Source of the DNA: Erodium maritimum
Lineage: Eukaryota > Streptophyta > Magnoliopsida > Geraniales > Geraniaceae
NCBI GenBank assembly: GCA_963921825.1
Contig: OY997589.1
Span: 86,706,216 to 86,770,215 of the forward strand
Length of the DNA stretch: 64,000 nucleotides
Direction of reading: 5' to 3'
The position numbers were made by a program, and so were the translations under genes. The notes beneath the pieces were generated by a model. That model did no database searches. It was not told where the DNA came from and was given only the letters and a program-made list of their open reading frames with translations. Positions 37,183 to 64,000 of the stretch are shown here, piece by piece; position 1 is the stretch's first letter, and every line of letters starts with the position of its first letter.

Positions 37183-38763
37183 TGTTGGAGTAATATATCG
37201 ATGTGTGCTCTGATCTATGCCCACCATGTGAATAGAACCATAGATCGAAATAGATCATACTCGATGGGTCCCTAGTCAACAAAGATTCATTGGAAGCGAC
37301 TAGTTAGAAAGATGGCTCTTTATGGCTTACGTTCTATTAGTCATTGGAATGGGATTCCGGAGTCTGATCATAGATATCATGTGGGACATGATATTGGACG
37401 ACCCGACATGAATATCTGCCATAGATCAAGTCATGAACATATTCATTGTCGTAGCTTGTCATGTATCCTTAGACCAAGGAGTCTTTGTGATCGCTATGCA
37501 GTAAACAACTGAGTTTGACCTGAGCCTAACGTTGTCCGTAACAGGGCTTCCATAACGGCCAGGATTGGCTTGGGAATGGACTGCATGAGCGACACAAAAG
37601 ACAGCTAAGGGATTTATCCCTTATACTACGGTATGAGAAAGATATCGGTTCTCGACCGCTTGATTGAGAGTGACTGAAAGAATAGCATGGCCATGCACAT
37701 GATACTGGGTATCATATATTCAGTCATCTCACATATCAAGGAACAGTGATTGAGAATAATAAGAATGACGGCTTTATGCCTTATCTCAATCAGGATATCG
37801 GAGATAAAAGGATAATGACAGGGACGACATAAAGGTTATAATCGACAGGGTCGATTCGTTATGCAGTGTCAGGTAATACTAAAGTCTCGTTAGTTTGTAC
37901 TTAAATAGGATCAAGTAAAATGGTATTTTACGTTGATCTATTGACATGCATAAACCTAAGGGTCACACCGGAGGATGAAACTCATTGACACATTTATGGA
38001 GAACGGCCAAACGGGAGTTGTCTCGGGACATGACCAAAACTGGGTTTTGGGTCATGTGCCCGTAAGTGAATAGGACATTACGGATCGAGACAAGGCTTGG
38101 AGTCTTGGGATTGATCACGCCGGATAATGTTGGACATTTCTGGTATGGAAGGCTTGGAGGCGATGAGCGCATCATGGAACCTCGTTGGGAATAGCCACGG
38201 GCCATGTTCCAAGAGGCCCATGCAACCAAGGCCCATGGAACTAATTAATCAAGTCTTGATTAATTAGTACTAAGTAAGCAAGACAAGGATTAAGGTGTTG
38301 GTGATTCACCACCTAACCCCATCTTGTCTAGCCATACTTTGTCCTATTTACACCTTACTTGATACCATACTTGTCCCATGCCTTTAGTTGGACAAGTATG
38401 AGGTTTGTTATGTTTAAGTCATCTTTTTTCAACATAACAAACACAAGAAAAGAATAGGAAACACAACTTCTCCCTCCTCTCCATGGCAATTTCGGGTTTG
38501 GCAAGCTCCCACCTCCATTTTTGTGTTCTTGAGTCCTCAAAGAGAAGAAGTACGTGACTTTGATTCCCATGTGGATACGTAGGCGTCTTGGAGACCAAGC
38601 CAATCATTCATTAACCGGTGTTCTTGTTTTGGTAAGAAATAGTGCTGAATTTTTCTCTTGTGAATCCATTCTTTGTTAGTTGTTTCATGGTTTTAATCGT
38701 CTCTTGGTTTTCATTGATTTTCCGCTGCGAGTTGGTTCATCTCCAACCCTACCTCGAGACCCA
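37183..38763 (+). repeat. 5' LTR of the copia fossil
   Basis: The LTR starts TGTTGGAGTAAT and ends near GAGACCCA, giving about 1.58 kb. The right edge is supported by the primer site five bases on; the left edge rests on the TG start only. The giant palindrome begins inside it, at 37987, so 37183-37986 occurs only once in the window. Confidence 0.55.
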
Positions 38764-38767
38764 ATAG

Positions 38768-38780
38768 TGGTACCAGAGCC
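38768..38780 (+). other. Primer-binding site of the copia fossil
   Basis: TGGTACCAGAGCC is one base from the usual TGGTATCAGAGCC complementary to initiator methionine tRNA. The mirror copy is at 63020-63032 on the minus strand. Confidence 0.75.
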
Positions 38781-40305
38781 GTGCTACCTTCGGGATTCAC
38801 AAGACGGTGTTGAAAGTTTAGGTTTTGACATGTTAATTTGCCAAATTGTTTGATAACATGTTTTAAATTCTTGTTTATGGGTTTGAAGCATGAAAAATGA
38901 ATTTTTGAAAAGTTTTTCAAATCTGGAAATTTTGAAAAAAAAAATTGATTTTTCGGGTCTCGGGAGCGGGACTCTCGGGGAGCCGAAATCGGGACCGAAC
39001 GGGGCTCCGTTGGACGGAGCTATGCCGAGCATGACCATTGGAGGGTTGATATTCCAAGACTAAACCGTTTTGTTAGTTATGACGAGTTTGAAACCGTCAT
39101 GACGAACTCGAAGATCAAATATTCAAAAGTTTCATTTTTGAACGGTTTCGATAAACCGAGTATCAAAAAATTTCGAAACTTGGAAATTAATCAAAACCGG
39201 AAAATCACATGATGTTTGATAACATGCTTATTTGATAACACGATGTGTGATGTGATGTTGGCATGGTGTACATAATAGCCCCGAGCTTGATTTAATTATT
39301 TATCGCTTTTCACGGCCTACGAGCCGTTAGAGTTGGCGTGTAATTATTCTTTCAAGGTGTGGTCGTCGAACCACTTGTTTGTAATATTTATTTATTCCCG
39401 ACCTGCGAGTCGTGTATTAACTTGTAATATTTTGCTCAAGACAAAGAAAGGGCGAAAAGGTCATTTGGTGGCTTTTCGGGTGTTGACATCGGCTTGGAGT
39501 CGATGGAGCTCAAGAAGCTAGTGGGAGTTAGTTTAGGGGGCTATTATGTGCACATTTATCGCTTTATGCTTGGTTTAGTTTATGCATGATTAATTCTATG
39601 TGTTTTAGAATGACATGCTTAACTTTATTTACCGAGCATATCACCTCACATGCAAAGATAAAATTGGAATTTTAATCCTTGTGTGTGAGCCCTTAGAATC
39701 GTCATTACATTGGATGTAGTTGACGGGTTCGAAGGAAGAATTACATTGGATGTAATTTGAGACATCATTGCTTTTGGAATGTAGTTGATGTGCTCATCGC
39801 ATCTAGGATGTGCCAAAGTTTTAAACACACCCGGACAAGTAAAAACGGGTCATGTCCGATACCTCCCAATTATCAACACCTTACTACCTCCCCGTCCTAT
39901 GGGTATCGTGCGCATTAGCGGAGCATCCATGGGAAAGCGGGGTAGTAGGTTTGGACGACATATGTGGGTGTCGTGCGCATTAGCGGAGCACCTACATAGT
40001 GAAGGACCATAGTTGAAAATTGGTGGACCCAACTACGATTATCAGCCTGAGGTTGAGATAGGGTAACAAATAGGGTAAGCCGTGTACATAAGTACATACC
40101 CTAGCCAAGAGTCACATTGGATGTGATTGGATGGAGTCCTACCTACATAGCTCGATTAAGTGGTGAGCATTAGTTCAGCTTAATCGAGTGAATCAAGGAT
40201 CTTGGTTTCAGATTCTAAAGGTTTAGAATCGATTGTTGGTGTTTAAGCTTGATCTTCATAAAATTTATTCAGTTTACTGATTGAATTTTATCTGTTGTAG
40301 ATCAA

Positions 40306-40700
40306 ATGGAAAATTCAGCGAACATTAATAGTTTGTCATTAAAAACCATTCTTGACAGGGTCAACCTAAATGGGACAAACTATTTGCACTAGTACAGAAT
40401 TTTGAGGATAGTCCTCAAATCTGAACGCAAAGAATATGTCCTTGACAAGGCTGTCTCTAAGACCATATCAGAGTTACATGAAGTGTCATTAACTGCTGAG
40501 AAGAATATATCAGGGATCTGGGATCCAATGATATTCTGATGGTCAACAAGGGAATTGGAAGTGCCAAGGGCGGGGCCCATGCGCACTTGGCGGGAAAGAT
40601 GAGACACTTGAGAATGTCTGCTTCTACTGCCAACAGCCTGGTCATTGGAACCGGGATTACAGGAAGTTCACGACTGATCTGAAGAAGGGCAGTGGGACTG
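40306..40700 (+). pseudogene. gag remnant of the copia fossil, left copy
   Basis: The region resembles copia gag: an NGTNY phrase near the start, then LRIVLKSERKEYVLDKAV, typical of the UBN2-like capsid domain, and a CCHC-like knuckle (CFYCQQPGHWNRDY). It is a broken fossil. The mirror copy is at 61100-61494 on the minus strand. Confidence 0.65.
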
Positions 40701-41126
40701 CGCCTTGATCAGATAGCCTGAATGATCTGCAGAAGGGCAGTAGGACTGCGCCTTCATCAGGAAACCTGGATGATCTAAGGAAGGACGGTGGGACCGTGCC
40801 TTCATCCGGTATTAACTCTATAGAGCTACATCTCTATACTTGCAAAGATTCATGGGTATTAGATACCAGGACTGAATCTCACACATGCACTACCGTATAG
40901 TGGCTGAAAGTAGGAGATGTTTGGAAAGCACGAAGTGGACCTCAGAGTTGTGGCAACTACTGTAGGATCCATGCGTCTTGCTTTGCCAAGTGGCCTTGTC
41001 TTAGTATTGTATAACGTATATTGCATACCTACTTTTAGTAGAAATATTATATCTGTATCCATGTTTGACAAGGAAGGATATAATGTTAATATTGGAAACT
41101 GAGTTTTCAATGTTCTATGCAATGAT

Positions 41127-41669
41127 ATGTTTTATACCAGTACTGACTTGGTTGGAGGATTGTACATATTAGATATGAGTAACAATACCTCAAGTTCTAT
41201 ATATTATGTTAATACCAAGAGGTCTAAATTCAACGATTTAAACCTAACTCTGTTATGGCACTTTCATTTGGGCCGGATAAACAAGAAGCGCCTATCAGTA
41301 CTTCAGAAGTGTGGGCTTTCAGGCCTATTCGAATTCCATTCGATCGATATGTGCAAGGCTTGTTTGATGGTCAAAATGACTAAAGCGCCCTTTATCGGAC
41401 GCGGTGAAAGGGCGGGTGAATTATTGGGGCTGATACACTCGAATGTGTGTAGACCAATAAGTTCACTTGCCAGGAGGAGTTTTAGCTACTTTATCACATT
41501 TACTGATGATTACAATATATATGATTATGTCTATTCGGTGAGACATAAGTCTGAAGCTTTTGATAAATTCAAAGAGTTTAAGACTAAAGTAGAAAACCAG
41601 CTCGACAAAGGTATTAAGGCACTTCGATTGGATCGAGGTGGAAAATACTTGCACACAGAGTTATTAGAT
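41127..41669 (+). pseudogene. Integrase region of the copia fossil, left copy
   Basis: The gag-pre-integrase motif (LTLLWHFHLGRINKKRL; CKACLMVKMTKAPF) is followed by the integrase core (ELLGLIHSNVCRPI; YFITFTDDYNIYDYVY). The order is typical of Ty1/copia. The later LTR at 41670 cuts it off. The inverted copy at 60131-60673 has the same predicted protein. Confidence 0.85.
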
Positions 41670-43895
41670 TGTCACGCCCCAAATCCGGTTTTGACCGGAC
41701 TCGAGACGTGAATTTAAAACAATAAATAAAATAGTAAATTACGATAGATAAATCTCAAAAAGTGATAATAATCAATTGAAAGAGTTAACAGATCATAAAA
41801 ACCATTATACCAAGTTTAGTTCGAAAACAACTGCACGTCTCTAGACCTACTAGACAAGACCCACGCCAGCTCCCAAGCTCAGTTGTGTCCTGCTAGCATA
41901 AATCCCGCTCAACACCTGAAACACCCCAAAGTAAGGGGTGAGCTTTCGCCCAGTAGAAAAAGTAGTTAAGGTAATGAACGTAGGCTCACCACCACGAGTA
42001 ACCGTCCAATTAGGGCATACTAGTACAGCACAACTAGCTACCAAACCGGGGTTCATAGCCAAACTTATAATACACTCAACGACAGCTTTCGCACATTAAA
42101 ACATTAACCAAACAGCAAACGTATCAAACATAGAAGCAAACATAACACACGCCCCGTACTATAGTCCCCGAACTCCGTCGGCTGTACACAACCCGATACC
42201 ATCATAACAAACCGGTAGGTCAAGTATCAATCGGACTACCTCTCGATCTAGAGGAGACGCATAACATCACGGAGACGTATAACGTCGAGAATGCCGAAAA
42301 CATCCCTATAGGGACACATATCGTCGGGACCCTCGGAAACGTCTCCAAAGGACCATAGATCATCGAGGCTGAAACACTGCACCTAATGCCCAACACGACC
42401 CGTAGGCCCAACACGACCCGTAGGCCCAACACGACCAGTAGGACCCAATCACAATATGGCTCGTCGGCCCAACCCGTCGGCCCCAAACACGACCCGTAGG
42501 CCCAATCACAACCGTCGGCCTAGATGCCCTACACCGGCATACCCCCTCGATGTATGCATCATACTGGAATACACTCCTCTTGGAACACACATCAAGAAAA
42601 TATCACGCATCGAAATGCCACAGATCAAACACGGCTCACCCAGCCCAACAATCTTACCACAAATACACAGTACGTCAGTCTATCACTCACCCGACCACAT
42701 CACAACCAAGGGTTAACAAGACAACAATCACGACACACTTGCCCACACATAGCAACAACATGTTCACCGGATATACTAACTCTTGACTCTTAAACTTATC
42801 GACAAAGGTCACACAACATACAACTCAATCAACAACAGGCAATTCAATCAACACAGAACCTACGGCTCGACATGGCCAATCTTCCAGCACGACAATTACC
42901 AAGACTGAAATCGTAAAAGATCACAGTTTATACGTCTACGCCAGTTAATCACATCCTACATGTTACTAAGACTTGTCCAGTTATTTAATTATTACCTAAC
43001 AGGCATACTAGTAACTTTCCGTAATTAAACCGGTATTCGCTACTTTCCCTACCTCAACCGAAGAACAACAGCTACGTCTCGTAGCTGCTGATGTCCTGGC
43101 TCGCTACCTCCGGTCTTCTCTTCGATCGAAGCCGGACTCTAAATTAACACAGAAAGCTAAGATTAATAACGGTTCCAAGTTTAATTTAAAAGTCACGACG
43201 ATCCAATTTAACCTCCACAGTTGCCATTTTAAACTCGAACGGGCTAAAAGCGGAATTAAACGACGAGTCGGGTTTGAGCACCCAAGCCCCGAGCACAGAA
43301 CCCGGTGCACATTTCCCGAGGCACAGTTCCCTATGCCTAAATCCCGAGGCGCGGATTCTGGTGCACAGATCCCGAGGTGTCCAATTCCCGCTTTTAACCT
43401 CGTCCTAAGTTCGTTTCAATAGTACGATTTAAACGTTCGGGTTTCCAAAACCGTTCATAAGTTCCAAGTCCTTTTTTTTAATTAACGATCTGGTAATCCG
43501 ATCCAAACGGTCCAACTTCGTTCCACAGTCCAAAAACCGATTTGAATTAAATCTGCTCTTAAATCCTTATTAATTCAGATTAACCTGTTTGAAACCCCTT
43601 TTAGTTTAAATCCGATTTTATTTTCCTTTTTCTTTTAATTTCTTTACTTTCAAACTCAAAACAGTCTAGATCCACAAAACAAAACTCGGGAAAGAAACAG
43701 AAAAGGGAAGAAGAACGGAGTTTTGGTTAGATTCCGACTGACAACGGCGAAGATGTTGCCGGCCGAGGTCTCACCGTAAAAGGGAAGGGACGATGCGGGG
43801 AAGTGGCTTCTCTGGTAGCCGTGGCGGTCGTAGAAGAGGGAGACGGTGGCGCGGCGAAGGCTGGACGGAGAAGAAGAGGGATAAGGTGGCTAGGG
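41670..43895 (-). mobile_element. Truncated LTR of the solo-LTR family, left arm
   Basis: It starts TGTCACGCCCCAAA on the plus strand, the reverse complement of the GGGGCGTGACA end of the solo LTR at 16637-19632. It shares that LTR's central segment (GTCCGGCTTCGATCGAAG, read minus, near 43110-43140). It lies inside the copia integrase. Its upstream portion is replaced by satellite from about 43896, so it is incomplete and cannot be dated. A short 18-bp tandem (CAACACGACCCGTAGGCC) lies at about 42390-42450. Confidence 0.75.
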
Positions 43896-46800
43896 CCTCC
43901 TGGCTACGGTCCTCGATACACGCGATAGAGCTCCCTTGCGGTCCGGGGCTAAAAATAACGCATTTAGCTTTTGGCCATTTTTTCACTTAAAGGATTGTCG
44001 GCAACTCGAAAGAGCAAGGTTTTTTTTATTGCAATTTGTGCCTCTAAACGAACTAAAATTGGCCCCTCCTCCTGGCTATGGTCCTAGATACACACGATGG
44101 AGCTCCTTTGCGGTCTGGGGATTAAAATAACGCATTGAGCTTTTGGCCATTTTTTCACTTAAAGGCTTATCGCCAACTCGAAAAAGCAAGATTTTTTTTC
44201 GCAATTTGTGCCTCTAAACGAACTCGAATTGGCCCTTCCTCCTGGCTACGGTCCTAGATACACACGATGGATCTCCCTTGGTGTCCGGGGCTAAAAATAA
44301 CGCATTTAGCTTTTGGCCATTTTTTCACTTAAAGGCTTGTCGCCAACTCGAAAAAGCAAGGTTTTTTTTCCGCAATTTGTGCCTCTAAACGAACTCGAAT
44401 TGGCTCCTCCTCCTGGCTACGGTCCTAGATACACACGATGGAGCTCCCTTGCGGTCCGGGGCTCAAAATAACGCATTTTTCTTTTGGCCATTTTTTCACT
44501 TAAAGGCTTGTCGCCAACTCGAAAAAGCAAGGGTTTTTTTCCCGCAATTTGTGCCTCTAAACGAACTCGAATTGGCCCCTCCTCCTGGCTACAGTCCTAG
44601 ATACACACGATGGAGCTCCCTTGTGGTTCGGGGCTCAAAATAACGCATTTATCTTTTGGCAATTTTTTCACATAAAGGCTTGTCGCCAACTCAAAAAAAG
44701 CAATGTTTTTTCTCAATTTGTGCCTCTAAACGAACTCGATTTGGCCCCTCCTCCTGGCTAAGGTCCTAGATACACACGATGGAAGACCCTTGGTGTCCAG
44801 GGCTCAAAATAACGCATTTATCTTTTGGCCATTTTTTCACATGCAGTCTTGTCGCCAACTCGAAAAAGCAAGGTTTTTTTCCCCGCAATTTGTGCCTCTA
44901 AATGAAGTCGAATGGGCCCCTCCTCCTGGATACGGTCCTAGATACACACGATGGAGCTCTCTTGCTGTCCGTCGCTCAAAATAACGCATTTAACTTTTGG
45001 ACATTTTTTCACTTAAAGGCTTGTCGCCAACTCGAAAAAGAATGGTTTTTTTCTCGCAATTTGTGCCTCTAAACGAACTCGAATTGATCCCTCCTCCTGG
45101 ATACGGTCCTAGATACACACGATGGAGCTCCCTTGCTGTCCGGGGCTCAAAGTAACGCATTTAACTTTTGTCCATTTGTTCACTTAAAGGCTTGTCGCCA
45201 ACTCGAAAAAGCAAGGTTTTTTTTTTTTGCAATTTGTGTCTCTAAACGAAGTCGAATTGGCCCCTCCTCCTTGCTACGGTCCTATATACACACGATGGAG
45301 CTCCCTTGGTGTCCGGGGCTCAAAATAACGCATTTAGCTTTTGGCCATTTTAAACTTTAAGGCTTGTCGCCAGCTCGAAAAAGCAAGGTTTTTTTTCTTC
45401 GCGATTTGTGCCTCCAAACGAACTTGAATTGGCCCCTCCTCCTGGCTAAGGTCATAGATACACACGATAGAGCTCCCTTGCGGTCCGGGGCTCAAAATAA
45501 TGCATTTAGCTTTTGGCCATTTTTTCACTTAAAGGCTTGTCGCCAACTCAAAAAAGCAAGGTTTTTTCTCAATTTGTGCCTCTAAACAAACTCGAATTGG
45601 CCCTTCCTCCTGGCTAATGTCCTAGATAGACACGATGGAGATCCTTTGCGGTCCGGGGCTCAAAATATCGCATTTAGGTTTTGGCCATTTTTTCAATTAA
45701 AGGCTTGTCGCCAACTCGAAAAAACAAGGTTTTTTTTCGCAATTTCTGCCTCTAAACGAACTCGAATTGGCCCCTCCTCCTTCCTACGGTCTTAGATACA
45801 CACGATGGATCTCCCTTGGTGTCCGGGGCTCAAAATAACGCATTTAGCTTTTAGCCATTTTTTCACATAAAAGCTTGTCGCCAACTCAAAAAAGCAATGT
45901 TTTTTCTCAATTTGTGCCTCTATACGAACTCGAATTGGCCCCTCCTACTGGTTACAGTCTTAGATACACACAATGGAGCTCCCTTGGTGTCCGGGGCTCA
46001 AAATAACGCATTTATATTTTGGCCATTTTTTCACATAAAGTCTTGTCGCCAACTCGAAAAAGAAAGTTTTTTTTCCGCAATTTGTGCCTCTAAACGAACT
46101 CGAATTGGACCCTCCTCCTGGAAACGGTCTTAGATACACACGATGGAGCTCCCTTGGGGTCCGAGGCTCAAAATCACCCATTTAACTTTTGGCCATTTTT
46201 TCACTTAAAGGCTTGTCGCCAACTCGAAAAAGCAAGGTTTTTTTAGCAATTTGTGCCTCTAAACGAACTCGAATTGGCCCCTCCTCATGCCGACGGTCTT
46301 AGATACACACGATGGATCTCCCTTGGTGTCCGGGGCTCAAAATAACGCATTTAGCTTTTAGCCATTTTTTCACATAAAAGCTTGTCGCCAACTCAAAAAA
46401 GCAATGTTTTTTTTTCTCAATTTGTGCCTCTATACGAACTCGAATTGGCCCCTCCTCCTGGTTACAGTCTTAGATACACACGATGGATCTCCCTCGGTGT
46501 CCGGGGCTCAAAATAACGCATTTATATTTTGGCCATTTTTTCACATAAAGTCTTGTCGCCAACTCGAAAAAGAAAGGTTTTTTTTCCCGCAATTTGTGCC
46601 TCTAAACGAACTCGAATTGGACCCTCCTCCTGGAAACGGTCTTAGATACACACGATGGAGCTCCCTTGGGGTCCGGGGCTCAAAATAACCCATTTAACTT
46701 TTGGCCATTTTTTCACTTAAAGGCTTGTCGCCAACTCGAAAAAGCAAGGTTTTTTTTCCAGCCATTTGTGCCTCTAAACGAACTCGAATTGGCCCCTCCT

Positions 46801-51224: not shown

Positions 51225-51256
51225 CAAAACCTTTCTTTATGTGAAAAAATGGCCTT
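51225..51256. other. 32-bp loop at the centre of the giant palindrome
   Basis: Left-arm sequence ends TCCTCCTGGCT at 51224 and its reverse complement AGCCAGGAGGA resumes at 51257. The loop contains CTTTATGTGAAAAAATGGCC, satellite sequence in right-arm orientation, joined to a shortened AAAACCTT piece. The centre is therefore itself made of rearranged satellite. Confidence 0.92.
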
Positions 51257-54200
51257 AGCCAGGAGGAGGGGCCAATTCGAGTTCGTTCAGAGGCACAAGT
51301 TGCGAAAAAACCTTGCTTTTTCGAGTTGGTGACAAGCCTTTATGTGAAAAAATGGCCAAAAGCTAAATGCGTTGTTTTGAGCCACGGACACCAAGGGTGC
51401 TCCATCGTGTGTATCCAGGACTGTAGCCAGGAGGAGTGGCCAATTCGAGTTCGTTTAGAGGTACAAATTGTGAAGAAAAAAAAACCTTGCTTTTTGGAGT
51501 TGGGGACAAGCCTTTAAGCGAAAAAATGGCCAAAAGATAAATGCGTTATTTTAAGCCCCGGACCGCAAGGGAGACCCATCGTGTGTATCTAGGACCTTAG
51601 CCTGGAGGAGGGGCAATTCGAGTTAATTTAGAGGCACAAATTGAGAAAAAACCTTGCTTTTTTGAGTTGGCAACAAGCCTTTAAGTGAAAAAATGGCCAA
51701 AAGCTAAAAGCGTTATTTTGCGCCCCGGACCGCAAAGGAGCTCCATCGTGTCTATCTAGGACCTTAGCCAGGAGGAGGGGCCAATTCGAGTTCGTTTAGA
51801 GGCACAATTTGAGAATAAAAAACCTTGCTTTTTCGAGTTGGCGACAAGCCTTTATGTGAAAAAAAGGCCAAAAGCTAAATGCGTTATTTTGTGCCCCGTA
51901 CCGCAAGGGAGCTCCATCTTGTGTATCTAGGACCGTAGCCAGGAGGAGGGTCCAATTTGAGTTCGTTTAGAGGCACAAAATGCGAAAACAATCCTTGCTT
52001 TTTCGATTTGGCGACAAACCTTTAAGTAAAAAAATGGCCAAAAGATAAATGCGTTATTTTAAACCCCGGACCGCAAGGGAGATCCAACGTGTGTATCTAG
52101 GACCTTAGCCTGGAGGAGGGGCAATTCGAGTTAATTTAGAGGCACAAATTGAGAAAAAAAAACCTTGCTTTTTCGAGTTGGCAACAAGTCTTTAAGTGAA
52201 AAAATGGCCCAAAGCTAAATGCGTTATATTGAGCCCCGGACCGCAAAGGAGCTACATCGTGTCTCTCTAGGACATTAGCCAGGAGGAGGGGCCAATTCGA
52301 ATTCGTTTAGAGGCACAAAATGCGGGGGGAAAAACCTTGCTTTTTCGAGTTGGCGACAGCCTTTAAGTGAAAAAATGGCCAAAACCTAAATGCGTTATTT
52401 TGAGCCCCAGACCGCAAGGGAGCTCCATCGTGTGTATCTAGGACCGTATCCAGGAGGAGGGGCCAATTCGAGTTCGTTTAGAGTCACAAGTTACGAAAAA
52501 ACATTGCTTTTTTGTGTTGGCGACAAGCCTTTATGTGAAAAAATGGCCAAAAGCTAAATGCCTTATTTTGTGCCCTGGACACCAAGGGTGATCCATCGTG
52601 TGTATCTAGGCCCGTAGACAGGAGGAGAGGACAATTCGAGTTCGTTTAGAGGTACAAATTGCGGGAAAAAAAACTTGATTTTTCGATTTGGCGCCAAGCC
52701 TTTAAGTGAAAAAATGTCCAAAACCTAAATGCGTTATTTTGAGCCCCGGACCGCAAGGGAGCTCCATCGTGTGTATCTAGGACTGTAGCCAGGAGGAGGG
52801 CCCAATTCGAATTCGTTTACAGGCACAAAATGCGGAAAAAAAACCTAGCCTTTTCGATTTGGCGACAAGCCTTTAAGTGAAAAAATGGCCAACAGCTAAA
52901 TGCGTTATTTTGAGCCCCGGACCGCAAGGGAGATCCATCGTCTGTGTCTAGGACCTTAGCCAGGAGGAGGGCCAATTCGAGTTCGGATAGAGGTACATAT
53001 TGAGAAAAAAAAACATTGCTTTTTTGTGTTGGCGACAAGCCTATATGTGAAAAAATGACCAAAAATTAAATGCGTTATTTTGTGCCCCGAACCGCAAGGG
53101 AGTTCCATCGCGTGTATCTAGGACCGTAGCCAGGAGGAGGGGCCAATTCGAGTTCGTTTAGAGGCACAAATTGCGGGAAAAAACCTTGCTTTTTCGAGTT
53201 GGCGACAAGCATTTAAGTGAAAAAATGGCCAAAGCAAAATGCGTTATTTTGAGCCCCAGACAACAAGGGAGCTCCATCGTGTGTACCTAGGACCGTAGCC
53301 AGGAGGAGGGGCCAATTCGAGTTCGTTTAGAGGCACAAATTGCGGAAAAAAAAACCTTCCTTTTTCGAGTTGGCGACAAGCCTTTATGTGAAAAAATGGC
53401 TATAAACTAAATACGTTATTTTGAGCCCCGGACACCAAGGGAGATCCATCGTGTGTATTTAAGACCGTAGCCAGGAGGAGAGGCCAATTCGAGTTCGTTT
53501 AGAGGCACAAATTGCAAAAAACCTTGCTTTTTCGAGTTGGCGACAAGCCTTTATGTGAAAAAATAGCCTAAAGCTAAATGTATTATTTAGAGCCCCGGGC
53601 CTCAAGGGACCTCCATCGTGTGTATCTAGGACCGTATACAGGAGGAGGGGCCAATTCTTGTTCGTTTAGAGGCACAAATTGAGAAAAAACCTTGCTTTTT
53701 CGAGTTGGCGACAAGCCTTTAAGTGGAAAAATGGCCTAAAGTTAAATGCATTATTTTGACCCTCGGACCGCAAGAAATCTCCATCGTGTGTATCTAGGAC
53801 CTTAGCTAGGAGGAGGGGCGAATTCGAGTTCGTTTAGAGGCACAAGTTGCGAAAAAAAACTTGTTTTTTCGAGTTGGCGACAAGCTTTAAGTGAAAAAAT
53901 GGCCTAAAGCTAAATGCGTTCTTTTAAGCCCCAGACACCAAGGGAGCTGCATCGTGTGTATCTAAGACTGTAACCAGGAGGAGGGGCCAATTCGAGTTCG
54001 TTTAGAGGCACAAATGCAGAAAAAACCTTGCTTTTTTAAGTTGGCGACAAGCCTTATGTGAAAAAATGGTTAAAAGCTAAATGCGTTATTTTGAGCCCAG
54101 GTCCGCAAGGGAGCTCCATCGTGTGTATCTTGGACCTTAGCTAGGAGGAGGGTCCAATTCGAGTTTGTTTAGAGGCACAAATTGCGAGAGAAAAAAACCT

Positions 54201-57200
54201 TGCTTTTTCGAGTTGGCGACAAGCCTTTAAGTGAAAAAATGGCCAAAAGCTAAATGCGTTATTTTGAGCCCCGGACAGCAAAGGAGCTCCTTCGTGTGTA
54301 TCTAGGACCGTAGCCAGGAGGAGGGGCCAATTCAAGTTCGTTTAGAGGCACAAATTGCGAAAAGAACCTTGCTTTTTCGAGATAGCGACAAGCCTTGAAG
54401 TGAAAAAACGGCCAAAAGCTAAATGCGTAAATTTTAGCCCCGGACCGCAAGGGAGCTCCATCGTGTGTATCTAGGACCGTAGCCAGGAGGAGGGGCCAAT
54501 TCGAGTTCGTTTAGAAGCACAAATTGCGAGAAGAAAAAAACCTTACTTTTTCGAGTTGGCGACAAGCCTTTAAGTGAAAAAATGGCCTAAAGCTAAATGC
54601 GTTATTTTGAGCCCGAACCGAAAGGGAGCTCCATCGTGTGTATCTAAGACCGTAGCCAGGAGGAGTGGCCAATTCGAGTTCGTTTGGAGGCACAAATTGC
54701 GAAACAAAACCTTGCTTTTTCGAGTTGGCGACAAGCCTTTATGTAAAAAAATGGCCAAAATATAAATGCGTTATTTTGAGCCCCGGACACCAAGGGAGCT
54801 CCATCGTGTGTATCTAGGATTTTAGCCAGGAGGACGGCCCAATTCGAGTTCGAATAGAGGCGCATATTGTAACAAAACCTTGCTTTTTCGAGTTGGCGAC
54901 AAACCTTTAAGTGAAAAAATGGCCAAAAGCTAAATGTGTTGTTTTGATCCCCGGACACCAAGGGAGCTACATCGTGTGTATCTAGGACCTTATCCAGGAG
55001 GAGGGGCCAATTCGAGTTCGTTTAGAGGCACAAATGGCTGGAAAAAAAACCTTGCTTTTTCGAGTTGGCGACAAGCCTTTAAGTGAAAAAATGGCCAAAA
55101 GTTAAATGGGTTATTTTGAGACCCGGACCCCAAGGGAGCTCCATCGTGTGTATCTAAGACCGTTTCCAGGAGGAGGGTCCAATTCGAGTTCGTTTAGAGG
55201 CACAAATTGCGGAAAAAAAAACCTTTCTTTTTCGAGTTGGCGACAAGACTTTATGTGAAAAAATGGCCAAAATATAAATGCGTTATTTTGAGCCCCGGAC
55301 ACCGAGGGAGATCCATCGTGTGTATCTAAGACTGTAACCAGGAGGAGGGGCCAATTCGAGTTCGTATAGAGGCACAAATTGAGAAAAAAAAACATTGCTT
55401 TTTTGAGTTGGCGACAAGCTTTTATGTGAAAAAATGGCTAAAAGCTAAATGCGTTATTTTGAGCCCCGGACACCAAGGGAGATCCATCGTGTGTATCTAA
55501 GACCGTCGGCATGAGGAGGGGCCAATTCGAGTTCGTTTAGAGGCACAAATTGCTAAAAAAACCTTGCTTTTTCAAGTTGGCGACAAGCCTTTAAGTGAAA
55601 AAATGGCCAAAAGTTAAATGGGTGATTTTGAGCCTCGGACCCCAAGGGAGCTCCATCGTGTGTATCTAAGACCGTTTCCAGGAGGAGGGTCCAATTCGAG
55701 TTCGTTTAGAGGCACAAATTGCGGAAAAAAAAACTTTCTTTTTCGAGTTGGCGACAAGACTTTATGTGAAAAAATGGCCAAAATATAAATGCGTTATTTT
55801 GAGCCCCGGACACCAAGGGAGCTCCATTGTGTGTATCTAAGACTGTAACCAGTAGGAGGGGCCAATTCGAGTTCGTATAGAGGCACAAATTGAGAAAAAA
55901 CATTGCTTTTTTGAGTTGGCGACAAGCTTTTATGTGAAAAAATGGCTAAAAGCTAAATGCGTTATTTTGAGCCCCGGACACCAAGGGAGATCCATCGTGT
56001 GTATCTAAGACCGTAGGAAGGAGGAGGGGCCAATTCGAGTTCGTTTAGAGGCAGAAATTGCGAAAAAAAACCTTGTTTTTTCGAGTTGGCGACAAGCCTT
56101 TAATTGAAAAAATGGCCAAAACCTAAATGCGATATTTTGAGCCCCGGACCGCAAAGGATCTCCATCGTGTCTATCTAGGACATTAGCCAGGAGGAAGGGC
56201 CAATTCGAGTTTGTTTAGAGGCACAAATTGAGAAAAAACCTTGCTTTTTTGAGTTGGCGACAAGCCTTTAAGTGAAAAAATGGCCAAAAGCTAAATGCAT
56301 TATTTTGAGCCCCGGACCGCAAGGGAGCTCTATCGTGTGTATCTATGACCTTAGCCAGGAGGAGGGGCCAATTCAAGTTCGTTTGGAGGCACAAATCGCG
56401 AAGAAAAAAAACCTTGCTTTTTCGAGCTGGCGACAAGCCTTAAAGTTTAAAATGGCCAAAAGCTAAATGCGTTATTTTGAGCCCCGGACACCAAGGGAGC
56501 TCCATCGTGTGTATATAGGACCGTAGCAAGGAGGAGGGGCCAATTCGACTTCGTTTAGAGACACAAATTGCAAAAAAAAAAAACCTTGCTTTTTCGAGTT
56601 GGCGACAAGCCTTTAAGTGAACAAATGGACAAAAGTTAAATGCGTTACTTTGAGCCCCGGACAGCAAGGGAGCTCCATCGTGTGTATCTAGGACCGTATC
56701 CAGGAGGAGGGATCAATTCGAGTTCGTTTAGAGGCACAAATTGCGAGAAAAAAACCATTCTTTTTCGAGTTGGCGACAAGCCTTTAAGTGAAAAAATGTC
56801 CAAAAGTTAAATGCGTTATTTTGAGCGACGGACAGCAAGAGAGCTCCATCGTGTGTATCTAGGACCGTATCCAGGAGGAGGGGCCCATTCGACTTCATTT
56901 AGAGGCACAAATTGCGGGGAAAAAAACCTTGCTTTTTCGAGTTGGCGACAAGACTGCATGTGAAAAAATGGCCAAAAGATAAATGCGTTATTTTGAGCCC
57001 TGGACACCAAGGGTCTTCCATCGTGTGTATCTAGGACCTTAGCCAGGAGGAGGGGCCAAATCGAGTTCGTTTAGAGGCACAAATTGAGAAAAAACATTGC
57101 TTTTTTTGAGTTGGCGACAAGCCTTTATGTGAAAAAATTGCCAAAAGATAAATGCGTTATTTTGAGCCCCGAACCACAAGGGAGCTCCATCGTGTGTATC

Positions 57201-57905
57201 TAGGACTGTAGCCAGGAGGAGGGGCCAATTCGAGTTCGTTTAGAGGCACAAATTGCGGGAAAAAAACCCTTGCTTTTTCGAGTTGGCGACAAGCCTTTAA
57301 GTGAAAAAATGGCCAAAAGAAAAATGCGTTATTTTGAGCCCCGGACCGCAAGGGAGCTCCATCGTGTGTATCTAGGACCGTAGCCAGGAGGAGGAGCCAA
57401 TTCGAGTTCGTTTAGAGGCACAAATTGCGGAAAAAAAACCTTGCTTTTTCGAGTTGGCGACAAGCCTTTAAGTGAAAAAATGGCCAAAAGCTAAATGCGT
57501 TATTTTTAGCCCCGGACACCAAGGGAGATCCATCGTGTGTATCTAGGACCGTAGCCAGGAGGAGGGGCCAATTCGAGTTCGTTTAGAGGCACAAATTGCG
57601 AAAAAAAATCTTGCTTTTTCGAGTTGGCGATAAGCCTTTAAGTGAAAAAATGGCCAAAAGCTCAATGCGTTATTTTAATCCCCAGACCGCAAAGGAGCTC
57701 CATCGTGTGTATCTAGGACCATAGCCAGGAGGAGGGGCCAATTTTAGTTCGTTTAGAGGCACAAATTGCAATAAAAAAAACCTTGCTCTTTCGAGTTGCC
57801 GACAATCCTTTAAGTGAAAAAATGGCCAAAAGCTAAATGCGTTATTTTTAGCCCCGGACCGCAAGGGAGCTCTATCGCGTGTATCGAGGACCGTAGCCAG
57901 GAGGC
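51257..57905 (-). repeat. Satellite array, right arm, about 39 monomers
   Basis: It is the reverse complement of the left array, monomer for monomer, except for the missing 681 bp and scattered differences. Examples: CATCTTGTG for CATCGTGTG near 51918, TGCGGGGGGA near 52321, and GAGACCCGG near 55118. In each difference I compared, the right arm was the one departing from the monomer consensus. Confidence 0.95.
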
Positions 57906-60130
57906 CCTAGCCACCTTATCCCTCTTCTTCTCCGTCCAGCCTTCGCCGCGCCACCGTCTCCCTCTTCTACGACCGCCACGGCTACCAGAGAAGCCACTTC
58001 CCCGCATCGTCCCTTCCCTTTTACGGTGAGACCTCGGCCGGCAACATCTTCGCCGTTGTCAGTCGGAATCTAACCAAAACTCCGTTCTTCTTCCCTTTTC
58101 TGTTTCTTTCCCGAGTTTTGTTTTGTGGATCTAGACTGTTTTGAGTTTGAAAGTAAAGAAATTAAAAGAAAAAGGAAAATAAAATCGGATTTAAACTAAA
58201 AGGGGTTTCAAACAGGTTAATCTGAATTAATAAGGATTTAAGAGCAGATTTAATTCAAATCGGTTTTTGGACTGTGGAACGAAGTTGGACCGTTTGGATC
58301 GGATTACCAGATCGTTAATTAAAAAAAAGGACTTGGAACTTATGAACGGTTTTGGAAACCCGAACGTTTAAATCGTACTATTGAAACGAACTTAGGACGA
58401 GGTTAAAAGCGGGAATTGGACACCTCGGGATCTGTGCACCAGAATCCGCGCCTCGGGATTTAGGCATAGGGAACTGTGCCTCGGGAAATGTGCACCGGGT
58501 TCTGTGCTCGGGGCTTGGGTGCTCAAACCCGACTCGTCGTTTAATTCCGCTTTTAGCCCGTTCGAGTTTAAAATGGCAACTGTGGAGGTTAAATTGGATC
58601 GTCGTGACTTTTAAATTAAACTTGGAACCGTTATTAATCTTAGCTTTCTGTGTTAATTTAGAGTCCGGCTTCGATCGAAGAGAAGACCGGAGGTAGCGAG
58701 CCAGGACATCAGCAGCTACGAGACGTAGCTGTTGTTCTTCGGTTGAGGTAGGGAAAGTAGCGAATACCGGTTTAATTACGGAAAGTTACTAGTATGCCTG
58801 TTAGGTAATAATTAAATAACCGGACAAGTCTTAGTAACATGTAGGATGTGATTAACTGGCGTAGACGTATAAACTGTGATCTTTTACGATTTCAGTCTTG
58901 GTAATTGTCGTGCTGGAAGATTGGCCATGTCGAGCCGTAGGTTCTGTGTTGATTGAATTGCCTGTTGTTGATTGAGTTGTATGTTGTGTGACCTTTGTCG
59001 ATAAGTTTAAGAGTCAAGAGTTAGTATATCCGGTGAACATGTTGTTGCTATGTGTGGGCAAGTGTGTCGTGATTGTTGTCTTGTTAACCCTTGGTTGTGA
59101 TGTGGTCGGGTGAGTGATAGACTGACGTACTGTGTATTTGTGGTAAGATTGTTGGGCTGGGTGAGCCGTGTTTGATCTGTGGCATTTCGATGCGTGATAT
59201 TTTCTTGATGTGTGTTCCAAGAGGAGTGTATTCCAGTATGATGCATACATCGAGGGGGTATGCCGGTGTAGGGCATCTAGGCCGACGGTTGTGATTGGGC
59301 CTACGGGTCGTGTTTGGGGCCGACGGGTTGGGCCGACGAGCCATATTGTGATTGGGTCCTACTGGTCGTGTTGGGCCTACGGGTCGTGTTGGGCCTACGG
59401 GTCGTGTTGGGCATTAGGTGCAGTGTTTCAGCCTCGATGATCTATGGTCCTTTGGAGACGTTTCCGAGGGTCCCGACGATATGTGTCCCTATAGGGATGT
59501 TTTCGGCATTCTCGACGTTATACGTCTCCGTGATGTTATGCGTCTCCTCTAGATCGAGAGGTAGTCCGATTGATACTTGACCTACCGGTTTGTTATGATG
59601 GTATCGGGTTGTGTACAGCCGACGGAGTTCGGGGACTATAGTACGGGGCGTGTGTTATGTTTGCTTCTATGTTTGATACGTTTGCTGTTTGGTTAATGTT
59701 TTAATGTGCGAAAGCTGTCGTTGAGTGTATTATAAGTTTGGCTATGAACCCCGGTTTGGTAGCTAGTTGTGCTGTACTAGTATGCCCTAATTGGACGGTT
59801 ACTCGTGGTGGTGAGCCTACGTTCATTACCTTAACTACTTTTTCTACTGGGCGAAAGCTCACCCCTTACTTTGGGGTGTTTCAGGTGTTGAGCGGGATTT
59901 ATGCTAGCAGGACACAACTGAGCTTGGGAGCTGGCGTGGGTCTTGTCTAGTAGGTCTAGAGACGTGCAGTTGTTTTCGAACTAAACTTGGTATAATGGTT
60001 TTTATGATCTGTTAACTCTTTCAATTGATTATTATCACTTTTTGAGATTTATCTATCGTAATTTACTATTTTATTTATTGTTTTAAATTCACGTCTCGAG
60101 TCCGGTCAAAACCGGATTTGGGGCGTGACA
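57905..60130 (+). mobile_element. Truncated LTR of the solo-LTR family, right arm
   Basis: This is the mirror copy of 41670-43895, in plus orientation and ending GGGGCGTGACA at 60130. I saw no difference from the left copy. Its upstream side runs into satellite in the same way. Confidence 0.75.
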
Positions 60131-63100
60131 ATCTAATAACTCTGTGTGCAAGTATTTTCCACCTCGATCCAATCGAAGTGCCTTAATACCTTTGTCGAGC
60201 TGGTTTTCTACTTTAGTCTTAAACTCTTTGAATTTATCAAAAGCTTCAGACTTATGTCTCACCGAATAGACATAATCATATATATTGTAATCATCAGTAA
60301 ATGTGATAAAGTAGCTAAAACTCCTCCTGGCAAGTGAACTTATTGGTCTACACACATTCGAGTGTATCAGCCCCAATAATTCACCCGCCCTTTCACCGCG
60401 TCCGATAAAGGGCGCTTTAGTCATTTTGACCATCAAACAAGCCTTGCACATATCGATCGAATGGAATTCGAATAGGCCTGAAAGCCCACACTTCTGAAGT
60501 ACTGATAGGCGCTTCTTGTTTATCCGGCCCAAATGAAAGTGCCATAACAGAGTTAGGTTTAAATCGTTGAATTTAGACCTCTTGGTATTAACATAATATA
60601 TAGAACTTGAGGTATTGTTACTCATATCTAATATGTACAATCCTCCAACCAAGTCAGTACTGGTATAAAACATATCATTGCATAGAACATTGAAAACTCA
60701 GTTTCCAATATTAACATTATATCCTTCCTTGTCAAACATGGATACAGATATAATATTTCTACTAAAAGTAGGTATGCAATATACGTTATACAATACTAAG
60801 ACAAGGCCACTTGGCAAAGCAAGACGCATGGATCCTACAGTAGTTGCCACAACTCTGAGGTCCACTTCGTGCTTTCCAAACATCTCCTACTTTCAGCCAC
60901 TATACGGTAGTGCATGTGTGAGATTCAGTCCTGGTATCTAATACCCATGAATCTTTGCAAGTATAGAGATGTAGCTCTATAGAGTTAATACCGGATGAAG
61001 GCACGGTCCCACCGTCCTTCCTTAGATCATCCAGGTTTCCTGATGAAGGCGCAGTCCTACTGCCCTTCTGCAGATCATTCAGGCTATCTGATCAAGGCGC
61101 AGTCCCACTGCCCTTCTTCAGATCAGTCGTGAACTTCCTGTAATCCCGGTTCCAATGACCAGGCTGTTGGCAGTAGAAGCAGACATTCTCAAGTGTCTCA
61201 TCTTTCCCGCCAAGTGCGCATGGGCCCCGCCCTTGGCACTTCCAATTCCCTTGTTGACCATCAGAATATCATTGGATCCCAGATCCCTGATATATTCTTC
61301 TCAGCAGTTAATGACACTTCATGTAACTCTGATATGGTCTTAGAGACAGCCTTGTCAAGGACATATTCTTTGCGTTCAGATTTGAGGACTATCCTCAAAA
61401 TTCTGTACTAGTGCAAATAGTTTGTCCCATTTAGGTTGACCCTGTCAAGAATGGTTTTTAATGACAAACTATTAATGTTCGCTGAATTTTCCATTTGATC
61501 TACAACAGATAAAATTCAATCAGTAAACTGAATAAATTTTATGAAGATCAAGCTTAAACACCAACAATCGATTCTAAACCTTTAGAATCTGAAACCAAGA
61601 TCCTTGATTCACTCGATTAAGCTGAACTAATGCTCACCACTTAATCGAGCTATGTAGGTAGGACTCCATCCAATCACATCCAATGTGACTCTTGGCTAGG
61701 GTATGTACTTATGTACACGGCTTACCCTATTTGTTACCCTATCTCAACCTCAGGCTGATAATCGTAGTTGGGTCCACCAATTTTCAACTATGGTCCTTCA
61801 CTATGTAGGTGCTCCGCTAATGCGCACGACACCCACATATGTCGTCCAAACCTACTACCCCGCTTTCCCATGGATGCTCCGCTAATGCGCACGATACCCA
61901 TAGGACGGGGAGGTAGTAAGGTGTTGATAATTGGGAGGTATCGGACATGACCCGTTTTTACTTGTCCGGGTGTGTTTAAAACTTTGGCACATCCTAGATG
62001 CGATGAGCACATCAACTACATTCCAAAAGCAATGATGTCTCAAATTACATCCAATGTAATTCTTCCTTCGAACCCGTCAACTACATCCAATGTAATGACG
62101 ATTCTAAGGGCTCACACACAAGGATTAAAATTCCAATTTTATCTTTGCATGTGAGGTGATATGCTCGGTAAATAAAGTTAAGCATGTCATTCTAAAACAC
62201 ATAGAATTAATCATGCATAAACTAAACCAAGCATAAAGCGATAAATGTGCACATAATAGCCCCCTAAACTAACTCCCACTAGCTTCTTGAGCTCCATCGA
62301 CTCCAAGCCGATGTCAACACCCGAAAAGCCACCAAATGACCTTTTCGCCCTTTCTTTGTCTTGAGCAAAATATTACAAGTTAATACACGACTCGCAGGTC
62401 GGGAATAAATAAATATTACAAACAAGTGGTTCGACGACCACACCTTGAAAGAATAATTACACGCCAACTCTAACGGCTCGTAGGCCGTGAAAAGCGATAA
62501 ATAATTAAATCAAGCTCGGGGCTATTATGTACACCATGCCAACATCACATCACACATCGTGTTATCAAATAAGCATGTTATCAAACATCATGTGATTTTC
62601 CGGTTTTGATTAATTTCCAAGTTTCGAAATTTTTTGATACTCGGTTTATCGAAACCGTTCAAAAATGAAACTTTTGAATATTTGATCTTCGAGTTCGTCA
62701 TGACGGTTTCAAACTCGTCATAACTAACAAAACGGTTTAGTCTTGGAATATCAACCCTCCAATGGTCATGCTCGGCATAGCTCCGTCCAACGGAGCCCCG
62801 TTCGGTCCCGATTTCGGCTCCCCGAGAGTCCCGCTCCCGAGACCCGAAAAATCAATTTTTTTTTTCAAAATTTCCAGATTTGAAAAACTTTTCAAAAATT
62901 CATTTTTCATGCTTCAAACCCATAAACAAGAATTTAAAACATGTTATCAAACAATTTGGCAAATTAACATGTCAAAACCTAAACTTTCAACACCGTCTTG
63001 TGAATCCCGAAGGTAGCACGGCTCTGGTACCACTATTGGGTCTCGAGGTAGGGTTGGAGATGAACCAACTCGCAGCGGAAAATCAATGAAAACCAAGAGA

Positions 63101-63813
63101 CGATTAAAACCATGAAACAACTAACAAAGAATGGATTCACAAGAGAAAAATTCAGCACTATTTCTTACCAAAACAAGAACACCGGTTAATGAATGATTGG
63201 CTTGGTCTCCAAGACGCCTACGTATCCACATGGGAATCAAAGTCACGTACTTCTTCTCTTTGAGGACTCAAGAACACAAAAATGGAGGTGGGAGCTTGCC
63301 AAACCCGAAATTGCCATGGAGAGGAGGGAGAAGTTGTGTTTCCTATTCTTTTCTTGTGTTTGTTATGTTGAAAAAAGATGACTTAAACATAACAAACCTC
63401 ATACTTGTCCAACTAAAGGCATGGGACAAGTATGGTATCAAGTAAGGTGTAAATAGGACAAAGTATGGCTAGACAAGATGGGGTTAGGTGGTGAATCACC
63501 AACACCTTAATCCTTGTCTTGCTTACTTAGTACTAATTAATCAAGACTTGATTAATTAGTTCCATGGGCCTTGGTTGCATGGGCCTCTTGGAACATGGCC
63601 CGTGGCTATTCCCAACGAGGTTCCATGATGCGCTCATCGCCTCCAAGCCTTCCATACCAGAAATGTCCAACATTATCCGGCGTGATCAATCCCAAGACTC
63701 CAAGCCTTGTCTCGATCCGTAATGTCCTATTCACTTACGGGCACATGACCCAAAACCCAGTTTTGGTCATGTCCCGAGACAACTCCCGTTTGGCCGTTCT
63801 CCATAAATGTGTC
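60131..63813 (-). mobile_element. Broken Ty1/copia fossil, right copy
   Basis: This is the mirror copy of 37987-41669: integrase region (60131-60673), gag remnant (about 61100-61494), leader, primer site (63020-63032) and part of the LTR (about 63037-63813). The LTR stops abruptly at 63813, where satellite begins; the missing 804 bp are those present at 37183-37986. The element is broken as in the left copy. Confidence 0.8.
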
Positions 63814-64000
63814 CGTGGCTCAAAATAATGCATTTAGCTTTAGGCCATTTTTTTCCCATATAGGCTTGTCGGCCCCTAAAAAACGCAAACTTTTCTTGCA
63901 ATTTAGGCATGTAAACAAACCTCAATTGGCCCGTCCTCCTGGATACGGTCTTAAATACACACGATAGAGATCCTGTGAGGTCCGGGGCTCAAAATAATGC
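63814..64000 (+). repeat. Diverged satellite monomer beyond the palindrome
   Basis: One monomer and the start of another are recognisable (GGCTCAAAATAATGCATTTA; CTCCTGGATACGGTCTTAAA; GGCTCAAAATAATGC at the window end). They carry changes not seen in the arrays, such as GGCCCCTAAAAAACGC and TTTAGGCATGTAAACAAACC. The orientation is that of the left array. The satellite therefore continues past the window as a more diverged subfamily. Confidence 0.88.

What the first reader, a model, noticed from the sequence alone, without database searches (positions are those of the whole stretch)
37987..63813. Near-perfect 26-kb palindrome with a 32-bp loop inside a satellite array
The two arms of 12.6-13.2 kb are reverse complements, with no difference seen over the outer 5.9 kb. 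The loop is only 32 bp. DNA with such a short spacer is expected to be unstable, so this is either a very young inverted duplication or a fold-back artefact of sequencing or assembly. Satellite monomers within an arm differ widely while mirror partners are almost the same, so the event came after the array had diversified.
Basis: partly seen in the sequence, partly recalled or inferred. Interest (0 to 1): 0.85.

Follow-up and report, generated by a model that had tools for sequence, protein, structure and literature searches.

The report
Young fold-back duplication at chromosome end
At the very end of one assembled plant chromosome, a 13-kb stretch of chromosome-end repeat DNA is followed by its own mirror image, most likely the scar of a broken chromosome end that folded back, copied itself and was then joined to another chromosome-end repeat, although a mistake in the genome assembly cannot be fully ruled out.

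Summary
The palindrome is in the sequence: arms 37987-51224 (13,238 bp) and 51257-63813 (12,557 bp), loop 51225-51256. The arms differ by 13 substitutions, five 1-bp indels and one 680-bp (four-monomer) deletion; the outer 5,909 bp carry one difference. The window is the last 64 kb of an 86.8-Mb scaffold, so only 187 bp follow the palindrome. The ~171-bp repeat is a subtelomeric satellite, found at 8 of 18 ends of the nine large scaffolds of a plant-type genome. The left flank is ancestral: 37987 lies inside a retroelement, and every other listed copy that reaches this point runs through it. The new breakpoint is 63813, where the mirrored retroelement is cut and joined to another satellite subfamily in normal polarity. 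Differences between the arms, a patchwork loop and unlike outer flanks argue against a single fold-back read. Best reading: a recent fold-back inverted duplication healed by joining to another subtelomeric array, as known from yeast and human inv-dup chromosomes. Main rival: a misjoin of two haplotypes at a scaffold end. Reads are needed to decide. New member of a known kind.

The parts
37987..43895 (+). Left outer arm (A): part of a high-copy retroelement (37987 to 41669; gag_pre-integrase domain in the reading frame 41103-41711) followed by other repeated DNA up to 43895
43896..51224 (+). Left satellite arm: 43 monomers of about 171 bp (subfamily I), normal polarity (F toward the right chromosome end)
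49140..49819 (+). 680 bp (four monomers, L31-L34) present in the left arm only; the monomers at 49176 and 49856, 680 bp apart, are identical, which suits a slip deletion in the right arm
51225..51256 (.). 32-nt loop, a patchwork of short satellite bits in both orientations; the 32-base pattern 51223-51254 has no other match in the genome with up to 3 mismatches
51257..57904 (-). Right satellite arm: 39 monomers, mirror of the left arm, inverted polarity
57905..63813 (-). Right outer arm (A'): mirror of 37987-43895 with one difference
63814..64000 (+). Last 187 bp of scaffold C2: subtelomeric satellite subfamily II in normal polarity; 63813/63814 is the derived breakpoint, with 3 bp (GAC, as in subfamily II) to 5 bp (GACAC, as in subfamily I) of possible microhomology at 63809-63813, compared by eye

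Best explanation
A real, recent fold-back inverted duplication at the right end of scaffold C2, healed by joining to another subtelomeric satellite array. Proposed steps: (1) a break or collapsed replication fork inside the subtelomeric array left a 3' strand; (2) that strand folded back, or its polymerase switched template, with the loop left as a 32-nt spacer; (3) synthesis copied the array and the adjoining retroelement backwards for about 12.6-13.2 kb; (4) the end was joined, perhaps through 3-5 bp of microhomology, to a subfamily II satellite array in normal polarity, presumably leading to a telomere. The right arm then lost four monomers by slippage between two identical monomers (or lost them during copying), and both arms picked up a few mutations. 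Shown: the arms, the order of monomers, the ancestral left flank, the derived right junction, the polarity, the patchwork loop. Inferred: the break, the fold-back, the capture of a telomere, the order of events.
For: Left flank ancestral: (query 37500-38500, best 40 candidates scored) all 39 matches other than the window's own left arm cross 37987 without a break at 94-95%; this list favours full-length matches. In one search (query 37900-43895) the three other copies that reach this point also cross it, and so does L028. Right junction derived: retroelement cut at 63813 and joined to satellite II. Polarity: the left arm and the last 187 bp have the normal polarity and only the mirrored arm is reversed. 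The arms are two separate DNA copies: 13 substitutions, five 1-bp indels, a 680-bp deletion, with likely derived substitution events on both arms (7 right, 2 left, 1 unclear). The loop chains short satellite pieces in F and R and its sequence occurs once in the genome. No third near-identical copy of the outer arm was listed. Fold-back repair in yeast uses similar spacers: median 35.5 nt in strains proficient for MRE11 and SAE2 (PMC7467729, passages) and 35 bp in two of three wild-type events (PMC10622511, passages).
Against: No reads or second assembly could be examined. The derived junction lies 187 bp from a scaffold end without telomere repeats, where support may be thin. About 0.1% divergence plus a repeat-length difference is also what two alleles would show. 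Four of five 1-bp indels lie in T runs, a usual place for sequencing error. The junction microhomology is short enough for chance. The mirrored piece is very short for a dicentric that broke at random. 42979 is not cleanly polarised: 4 of 5 paralogous stretches have the right-arm base G, 1 has A. The excess of derived events on the right arm is not significant.
Confidence: 0.6

Rival explanations
1. Assembly misjoin at a scaffold end: the two arms are the two haplotypes of one subtelomere, joined head to head through a fold-back or chimeric read, and the last 187 bp come from a chimeric or low-coverage read.
For: Scaffold end without telomere repeats; divergence of about 0.1% plus a four-monomer length difference resembles allelic variation; four other scaffolds begin with N blocks of 2,500 or 5,000 bases, three of them followed by this satellite or by telomere repeats, so chromosome ends may be assembled imperfectly here; ONT genomic DNA contains about 0.55-0.6% fold-back reads (PMC12870357, passages).
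Against: A second haplotype should continue past the mirror of 37987 into the same retroelement; instead the mirror stops there and subfamily II satellite begins. The 32-nt loop is a patchwork of satellite bits. No leftover second allele was listed (DNA searches score only the best 40 candidates).
Confidence: 0.25
2. Single-molecule fold-back read (library artefact) taken into the assembly.
For: Near-perfect mirror with a very short spacer.
Against: A fold-back read copies one molecule, so it would not yield a four-monomer deletion plus clustered substitutions with likely derived states on both arms, nor different outer flanks. Fold-back reads were virtually absent from the PacBio HiFi data in PMC12870357, which looked at only three PacBio samples (passages); the read type used here is unknown.
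Confidence: 0.07
3. Real inverted duplication, but by sister-chromatid fusion or breakage-fusion-bridge cycles, with a full dicentric that broke 12.6 kb from the fold.
For: Known route to terminal inverted duplications, stabilised by telomere capture (PMC10622511, abstract and passages; PMC3907307, abstract and passages).
Against: A break only 12.6 kb from the fold on an 86.8-Mb scaffold is unlikely for a randomly broken dicentric (inference). Sister-chromatid fusion is said to leave no spacer (PMC3907307, passages), and here a loop of satellite patchwork is present.
Confidence: 0.08

Closest known systems
Yeast fold-back inversions with secondary rearrangement (PMC7467729: abstract, passages and section 13; PMC10622511: passages)
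   Same: Inverted duplication centred on a short spacer (median 35.5 nt in MRE11/SAE2-proficient strains; 35 bp in two of three wild-type events; 32 nt here); the mirrored segment ends at a second junction to another, usually repeated, sequence.
   Different: Here inferred from one assembly of a plant; both junctions involve subtelomeric satellite; the second junction has at most 3-5 bp of microhomology, while the yeast secondary events were mostly homology-mediated; the mirrored piece is only 12.6 kb. The two yeast papers disagree on a role for Pol32, so the copying step is open.
Human inv-dup-del and inv-dup-translocation chromosomes formed by fold-back (PMC3907307: abstract and passages)
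   Same: Non-inverted copy, short spacer, inverted copy, then a telomere or translocated sequence; one listed case (M396) has a duplication of 10,434 bp with a translocation.
   Different: Spacers of 766-70,466 bp in 21 sequenced junctions against 32 nt here; the other listed duplications that I saw are far larger; terminal deletion not testable here.
Fold-back artefact reads (PMC12870357: passages)
   Same: Symmetric mirror around a very short centre.
   Different: Such reads copy one molecule; here the arms differ by a 680-bp deletion and 18 small changes and end in different flanks.
Plant subtelomeric satellites such as khipu of bean or the potato repeats (PMC3797529, PMC3276127: search listing only)
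   Same: Tandem satellite near telomeres at several chromosome ends.
   Different: Repeat unit of about 171 bp (khipu 528 bp according to its abstract); no sequence comparison with those families was made.

Membership tests
Fold-back inverted duplication with secondary capture | Near-identical inverted copies around a short single-copy spacer | tested here: met
   loop pattern found once in the genome
Fold-back inverted duplication with secondary capture | Inverted microhomology at the edge of the spacer | tested here: inconclusive
   GGCT at 51221-51224 and AGCC at 51257-51260 flank the loop, but they belong to the palindrome itself; the sequence before the event is not known
Fold-back inverted duplication with secondary capture | Mirrored copy ends at a second junction to other sequence, with the non-inverted copy in its original context | tested here: met
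   All 39 other listed copies continue across 37987 (a list that favours full-length matches), and the three other copies reaching it; 63813 joins satellite II
Fold-back inverted duplication with secondary capture | Loss of the original distal end and gain of a telomere | not testable with these tools
   The scaffold ends 187 bp after the junction, without telomere repeats
Subtelomeric satellite | Tandem arrays next to telomeres at several chromosome ends | tested here: met
   Satellite at 8 of 18 ends of the nine large scaffolds (10 kb read at starts, some of it N; 2 kb at right ends, 10 kb at C3 end, the window at C2 end); telomere repeats on the same stretch at C4 start, C5 start and C9 end; at none of 11 starts of small contigs C10-C20. 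C21-C40 and chromosome interiors were not read
Single-molecule fold-back read artefact | Arms are copies of one molecule and therefore agree but for read errors | tested here: not met
   680-bp deletion, clustered substitutions, likely derived states on both arms
Haplotype misjoin | The mirror continues into the allele of the left flank | tested here: not met
   The mirror stops at 63813 and subfamily II satellite begins; a chimeric end read could still mask this
Transposon with long terminal inverted repeats (fold-back element) | Element edges at 37987 and 63813, with target-site duplication | tested here: not met
   37987 is inside a longer retroelement; the sequences flanking 37987 and 63813 differ and show no target-site duplication by eye

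The most novel reading that the evidence does not exclude
Fold-back copying followed by joining to another subtelomeric satellite is a recurrent way in which this plant repairs and extends broken chromosome ends, and it explains why satellite polarity flips near chromosome ends: 3 of the 8 satellite-bearing ends read here (C2 end, C3 end, C5 start) hold a flip. The C2 palindrome would be a young case caught before its mirror decayed, and the C5 flip (43-nt spacer, both sides broken at the same satellite phase, next to telomere repeats) an old one.
Probability: 0.18. Interest if true: 0.7.

Novelty: new member of a known kind. Interest (0 to 1): 0.4.

Why it matters
The fold-back inverted duplications in the papers I saw come from yeast, tumours and human patients. 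If real, this is a sequence-resolved case in a plant subtelomere, with the ancestral and the new junction told apart, and it suggests how satellite arrays at chromosome ends flip polarity and grow. If it proves to be a misjoin, it shows how a scaffold end can be padded with about 12.8 kb of false mirrored sequence whose arms differ in a lifelike way.

Tried and rejected
Transposon with giant terminal inverted repeats: rejected, because 37987 is interior to a longer retroelement and the flanks show no target-site duplication by eye.

Recent tandem duplication in the left arm as the source of the 680-bp difference: rejected, because the best other block is only 95% identical, while monomers 31 and 35 are identical and 680 bp apart, which suits a deletion in the right arm. 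Against a simple story: monomers 33 and 40 are also identical, and 32/39 and 34/41 are 98% alike, so the array has an older 7-monomer repeat pattern as well.

All changes on the copied arm (mutagenic copying): considered and not supported; 7 right against 2 or 3 left gives p = 0.18 or 0.34.

Dating: the outer arms give 12 thousand years (0.3-67) and nine satellite substitution events about 97 (44-184), at a recalled rate of 7e-9 per site per year. I do not rely on these, since gene conversion, copying errors and sequencing errors are not separated. Satellite and outer arm differ in rate (Fisher p = 0.024), which a single clock does not explain.

Other polarity flips as recent palindromes: rejected. 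At C5 start the mirror identity of 90.5% over 262 bp is no better than other pairs in that array; at C3 end the pieces centred on the flip are 83-85% alike.

Not achieved: placing the satellite and the last 187 bp across the genome by search (these searches did not complete); species identification (not pursued); a read check (no reads available).
Full report
Observation. The inverted repeat is in the sequence. BLAST pairs 37987-50547 with 63813-51253 inverted. A global alignment gives arms of 13,238 bp (37987-51224) and 12,557 bp (51257-63813) around a 32-nt loop (51225-51256), with 13 substitutions, five 1-bp indels and one 680-bp indel outside the loop; 16 further mismatches listed there are the loop aligned with itself. 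The outer 5,909 bp have one difference (42979/58821); the outermost 4,992 bp are identical. The satellite part holds 43 monomers on the left and 39 on the right. Right monomers match left monomers 0-30 and then 35-42 in order at 98.2-100%, while the 903 pairs within the left array average 87.4%. The mirror is therefore younger than the diversity of the array.

Where it lies. The window is G000:C2:86706216-86770215 of a 763-Mb genome in 40 contigs, and C2 ends at 86,770,215. The palindrome thus stops 187 bp before the end of the scaffold. I read 10 kb at the starts of C1-C20, 2 kb at the right ends of C1 and C3-C9 and 8 kb more at the C3 end. The satellite of the arms occurs at 8 of the 18 ends of the nine large scaffolds: C2 end, C3 start and end, C4 start and end, C5 start, C7 start, C9 end. 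It lies on the same stretch as plant-type telomere repeats at C4 start, C5 start and C9 end. None of the 11 small-contig starts (C10-C20) has it. I call it a subtelomeric satellite on this basis; chromosome interiors were not searched for it, because those searches did not complete.

Polarity and subfamilies. Read from centromere to telomere the satellite has one polarity at 7 of these 8 ends (F on right ends, R on left ends), leaving aside the mirrored arm in C2 and a fragment of about 260 bp at C5 start. The exception is the C3 end, R for about 9 kb and then F for the last kb. In the window the left arm and the last 187 bp have the normal polarity and only the mirrored arm is reversed. The last 187 bp belong to another subfamily: they match C3 start, C5 start and C4 end at about 88%, and full-length monomers of the arms at 82% at best.

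Which junction is new. In a search with 37500-38500 that scored the best 40 candidates, all 39 matches other than the window's own left arm cross 37987 without a break at 94-95% (38 over the full 1,001 bases, one from base 5). Such a list favours full-length matches, so it shows that the uninterrupted form is common, not that other forms are absent. In the search with 37900-43895 (41 matches listed, two of them the arms), three other copies run from 37900 or 37901 to 41669, 35 start further in (query 481-628, that is 38380-38527) and say nothing about 37987, and one is a short 71% match elsewhere. L028 also crosses 37987. None of the listed copies starts at 37987 except the right arm. So 37987 lies inside a high-copy retroelement and the left context is ancestral. 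The frame 41103-41711 matches the gag_pre-integrase domain, and the 38 other retroelement copies end at 41669. At 63813 the mirrored retroelement is cut and satellite begins. The bases GAC are shared there with subfamily II, and GACAC with subfamily I (compared by eye): 3-5 bp of possible microhomology, short enough for chance.

The loop. The loop and its edges chain GGCTCAAAAC (F, once in the left array), AAAACCTTTCTTT (R, once), CTTTATGTGAAAAAATGGCC (R, five times) and CCTTAGCCAGG... (R, four times), each overlapping the next by 2-5 bases. The 32-base pattern 51223-51254 occurs once in the genome with up to 3 mismatches. Such patchworks suit template switching or end joining with templated inserts; this is inference.

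Differences between the arms. Judged against the other monomers, seven substitution events look derived on the right arm (46225; 46678; 48812-48813; 50152-50154; 50452; 50522; 50561), one on the left (44236) and one is unclear (46586). In the outer arm 42979 looks left-derived, but only 4 of 5 paralogous stretches carry the right-arm base. Seven against two or three is not significant (p = 0.18 or 0.34). Four of the five 1-bp indels lie in T runs and may be errors. The 680-bp difference fits a right-arm deletion between identical monomers at 49176 and 49856. The arms are thus two DNA copies and not one molecule read twice. Two alleles would also fit these numbers.

Mechanism. I favour a break or fork collapse in the array, fold-back or template switch leaving the 32-nt loop, copying backwards through the array and part of the retroelement, and joining to a subfamily II array in normal polarity. 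PMC7467729 (abstract, passages, section 13) reports single-strand hairpins as the source of fold-back inversions, a median loop of 35.5 nt in MRE11/SAE2-proficient strains, and secondary rearrangements, mostly by homology, that stabilise the product. PMC10622511 (passages) reports a 5-bp inverted repeat with a 35-bp spacer in two of three wild-type events, telomere capture, and mentions a model without a dicentric in which fill-in synthesis switches template at a repeat, while itself giving strong support to the dicentric model. The two papers differ on Pol32. PMC3907307 (abstract and passages) describes the human counterparts, with longer spacers. I prefer the model without a dicentric because only about 12.6 kb are mirrored; this is inference.

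Artefact. PMC12870357 (passages) reports fold-back reads at about 0.55-0.6% of ONT genomic reads and virtually none in HiFi, from three PacBio samples; the read type behind this assembly is unknown. A simple fold-back read is disfavoured by the differences between the arms and by the different flanks. The serious rival is a head-to-head join of two haplotypes with a chimeric tail, since the new junction is 187 bp from a scaffold end without telomere repeats. No near-identical third copy of the outer arm was listed, though only the best 40 candidates are scored.

Other flips. C5 start has an F/R flip with a 43-nt spacer next to telomere repeats, both sides broken at the same satellite phase, but its mirror identity (237 of 262 positions, 90.5%) equals the array background. 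C3 end flips from R to F, with 83-85% identity for the pieces centred on the flip. If these were fold-backs they are old.

Literature. Eight searches were run; most listings showed only the top 8-15 of more papers. In what was listed I saw no title or abstract on a sequence-resolved fold-back duplication in a plant subtelomere; the search aimed most closely at fold-back inversions in plants returned none (at least four of five terms). The library holds open-licence papers only, so this is weak evidence that none is in print. McClintock's breakage-fusion-bridge work in maize is recalled.

Verdict. Observation confirmed with corrections; most likely a real young fold-back duplication healed with another subtelomeric satellite (0.6), with a haplotype misjoin as the main rival (0.25). 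New member of a known kind.

Noticed in passing
L015:3190-3520 (C5 start): Just inside the telomere repeats a satellite fragment of about 260 bp in reversed polarity is followed by a 43-nt spacer that by eye looks hairpin-like, and then by the normal-polarity array; both sides break at the same satellite phase (AAATGGCC).
   Followed up: partly
L032:990 (C3 end, about 1 kb from the scaffold end): Satellite polarity flips from R to F without a spacer and without a recent mirror.
   Followed up: partly
L013, L015, L017, L019 (starts of C3, C5, C7, C9): Scaffold starts begin with N blocks of exactly 5,000 or 2,500 bases; it is not clear whether these are gaps of the assembly or withheld stretches.
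   Followed up: no
C9:38255576-38272350, C1:50932364-50941496 and C4:43519316-43527072; coordinates only, not fetched: Copies of the retroelement that overlaps the palindrome repeat at constant spacing (6,747 bp between three copies on C9; 4,066 bp between three on C1; 6,756 bp between two on C4), which looks like tandem retroelement arrays.
   Followed up: no
window:37500-41669: High-copy retroelement: 38 other copies listed and 39 (overlap between the lists not checked), at 92-95%; the 38 all end at the same base, 41669.
   Followed up: partly
window:49176-51224: Left array monomers 31 and 35, and 33 and 40, are identical although pairs in the array average 87%, a sign of recent exchange inside the array.
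   Followed up: partly
window:11358-13415 and window:5894-6664: Ordinary plant gene pieces near the chromosome end: DIOX_N and 2OG-FeII_Oxy domains in neighbouring frames, as of one dioxygenase gene with introns, and a Stress-antifung domain protein.
   Followed up: no
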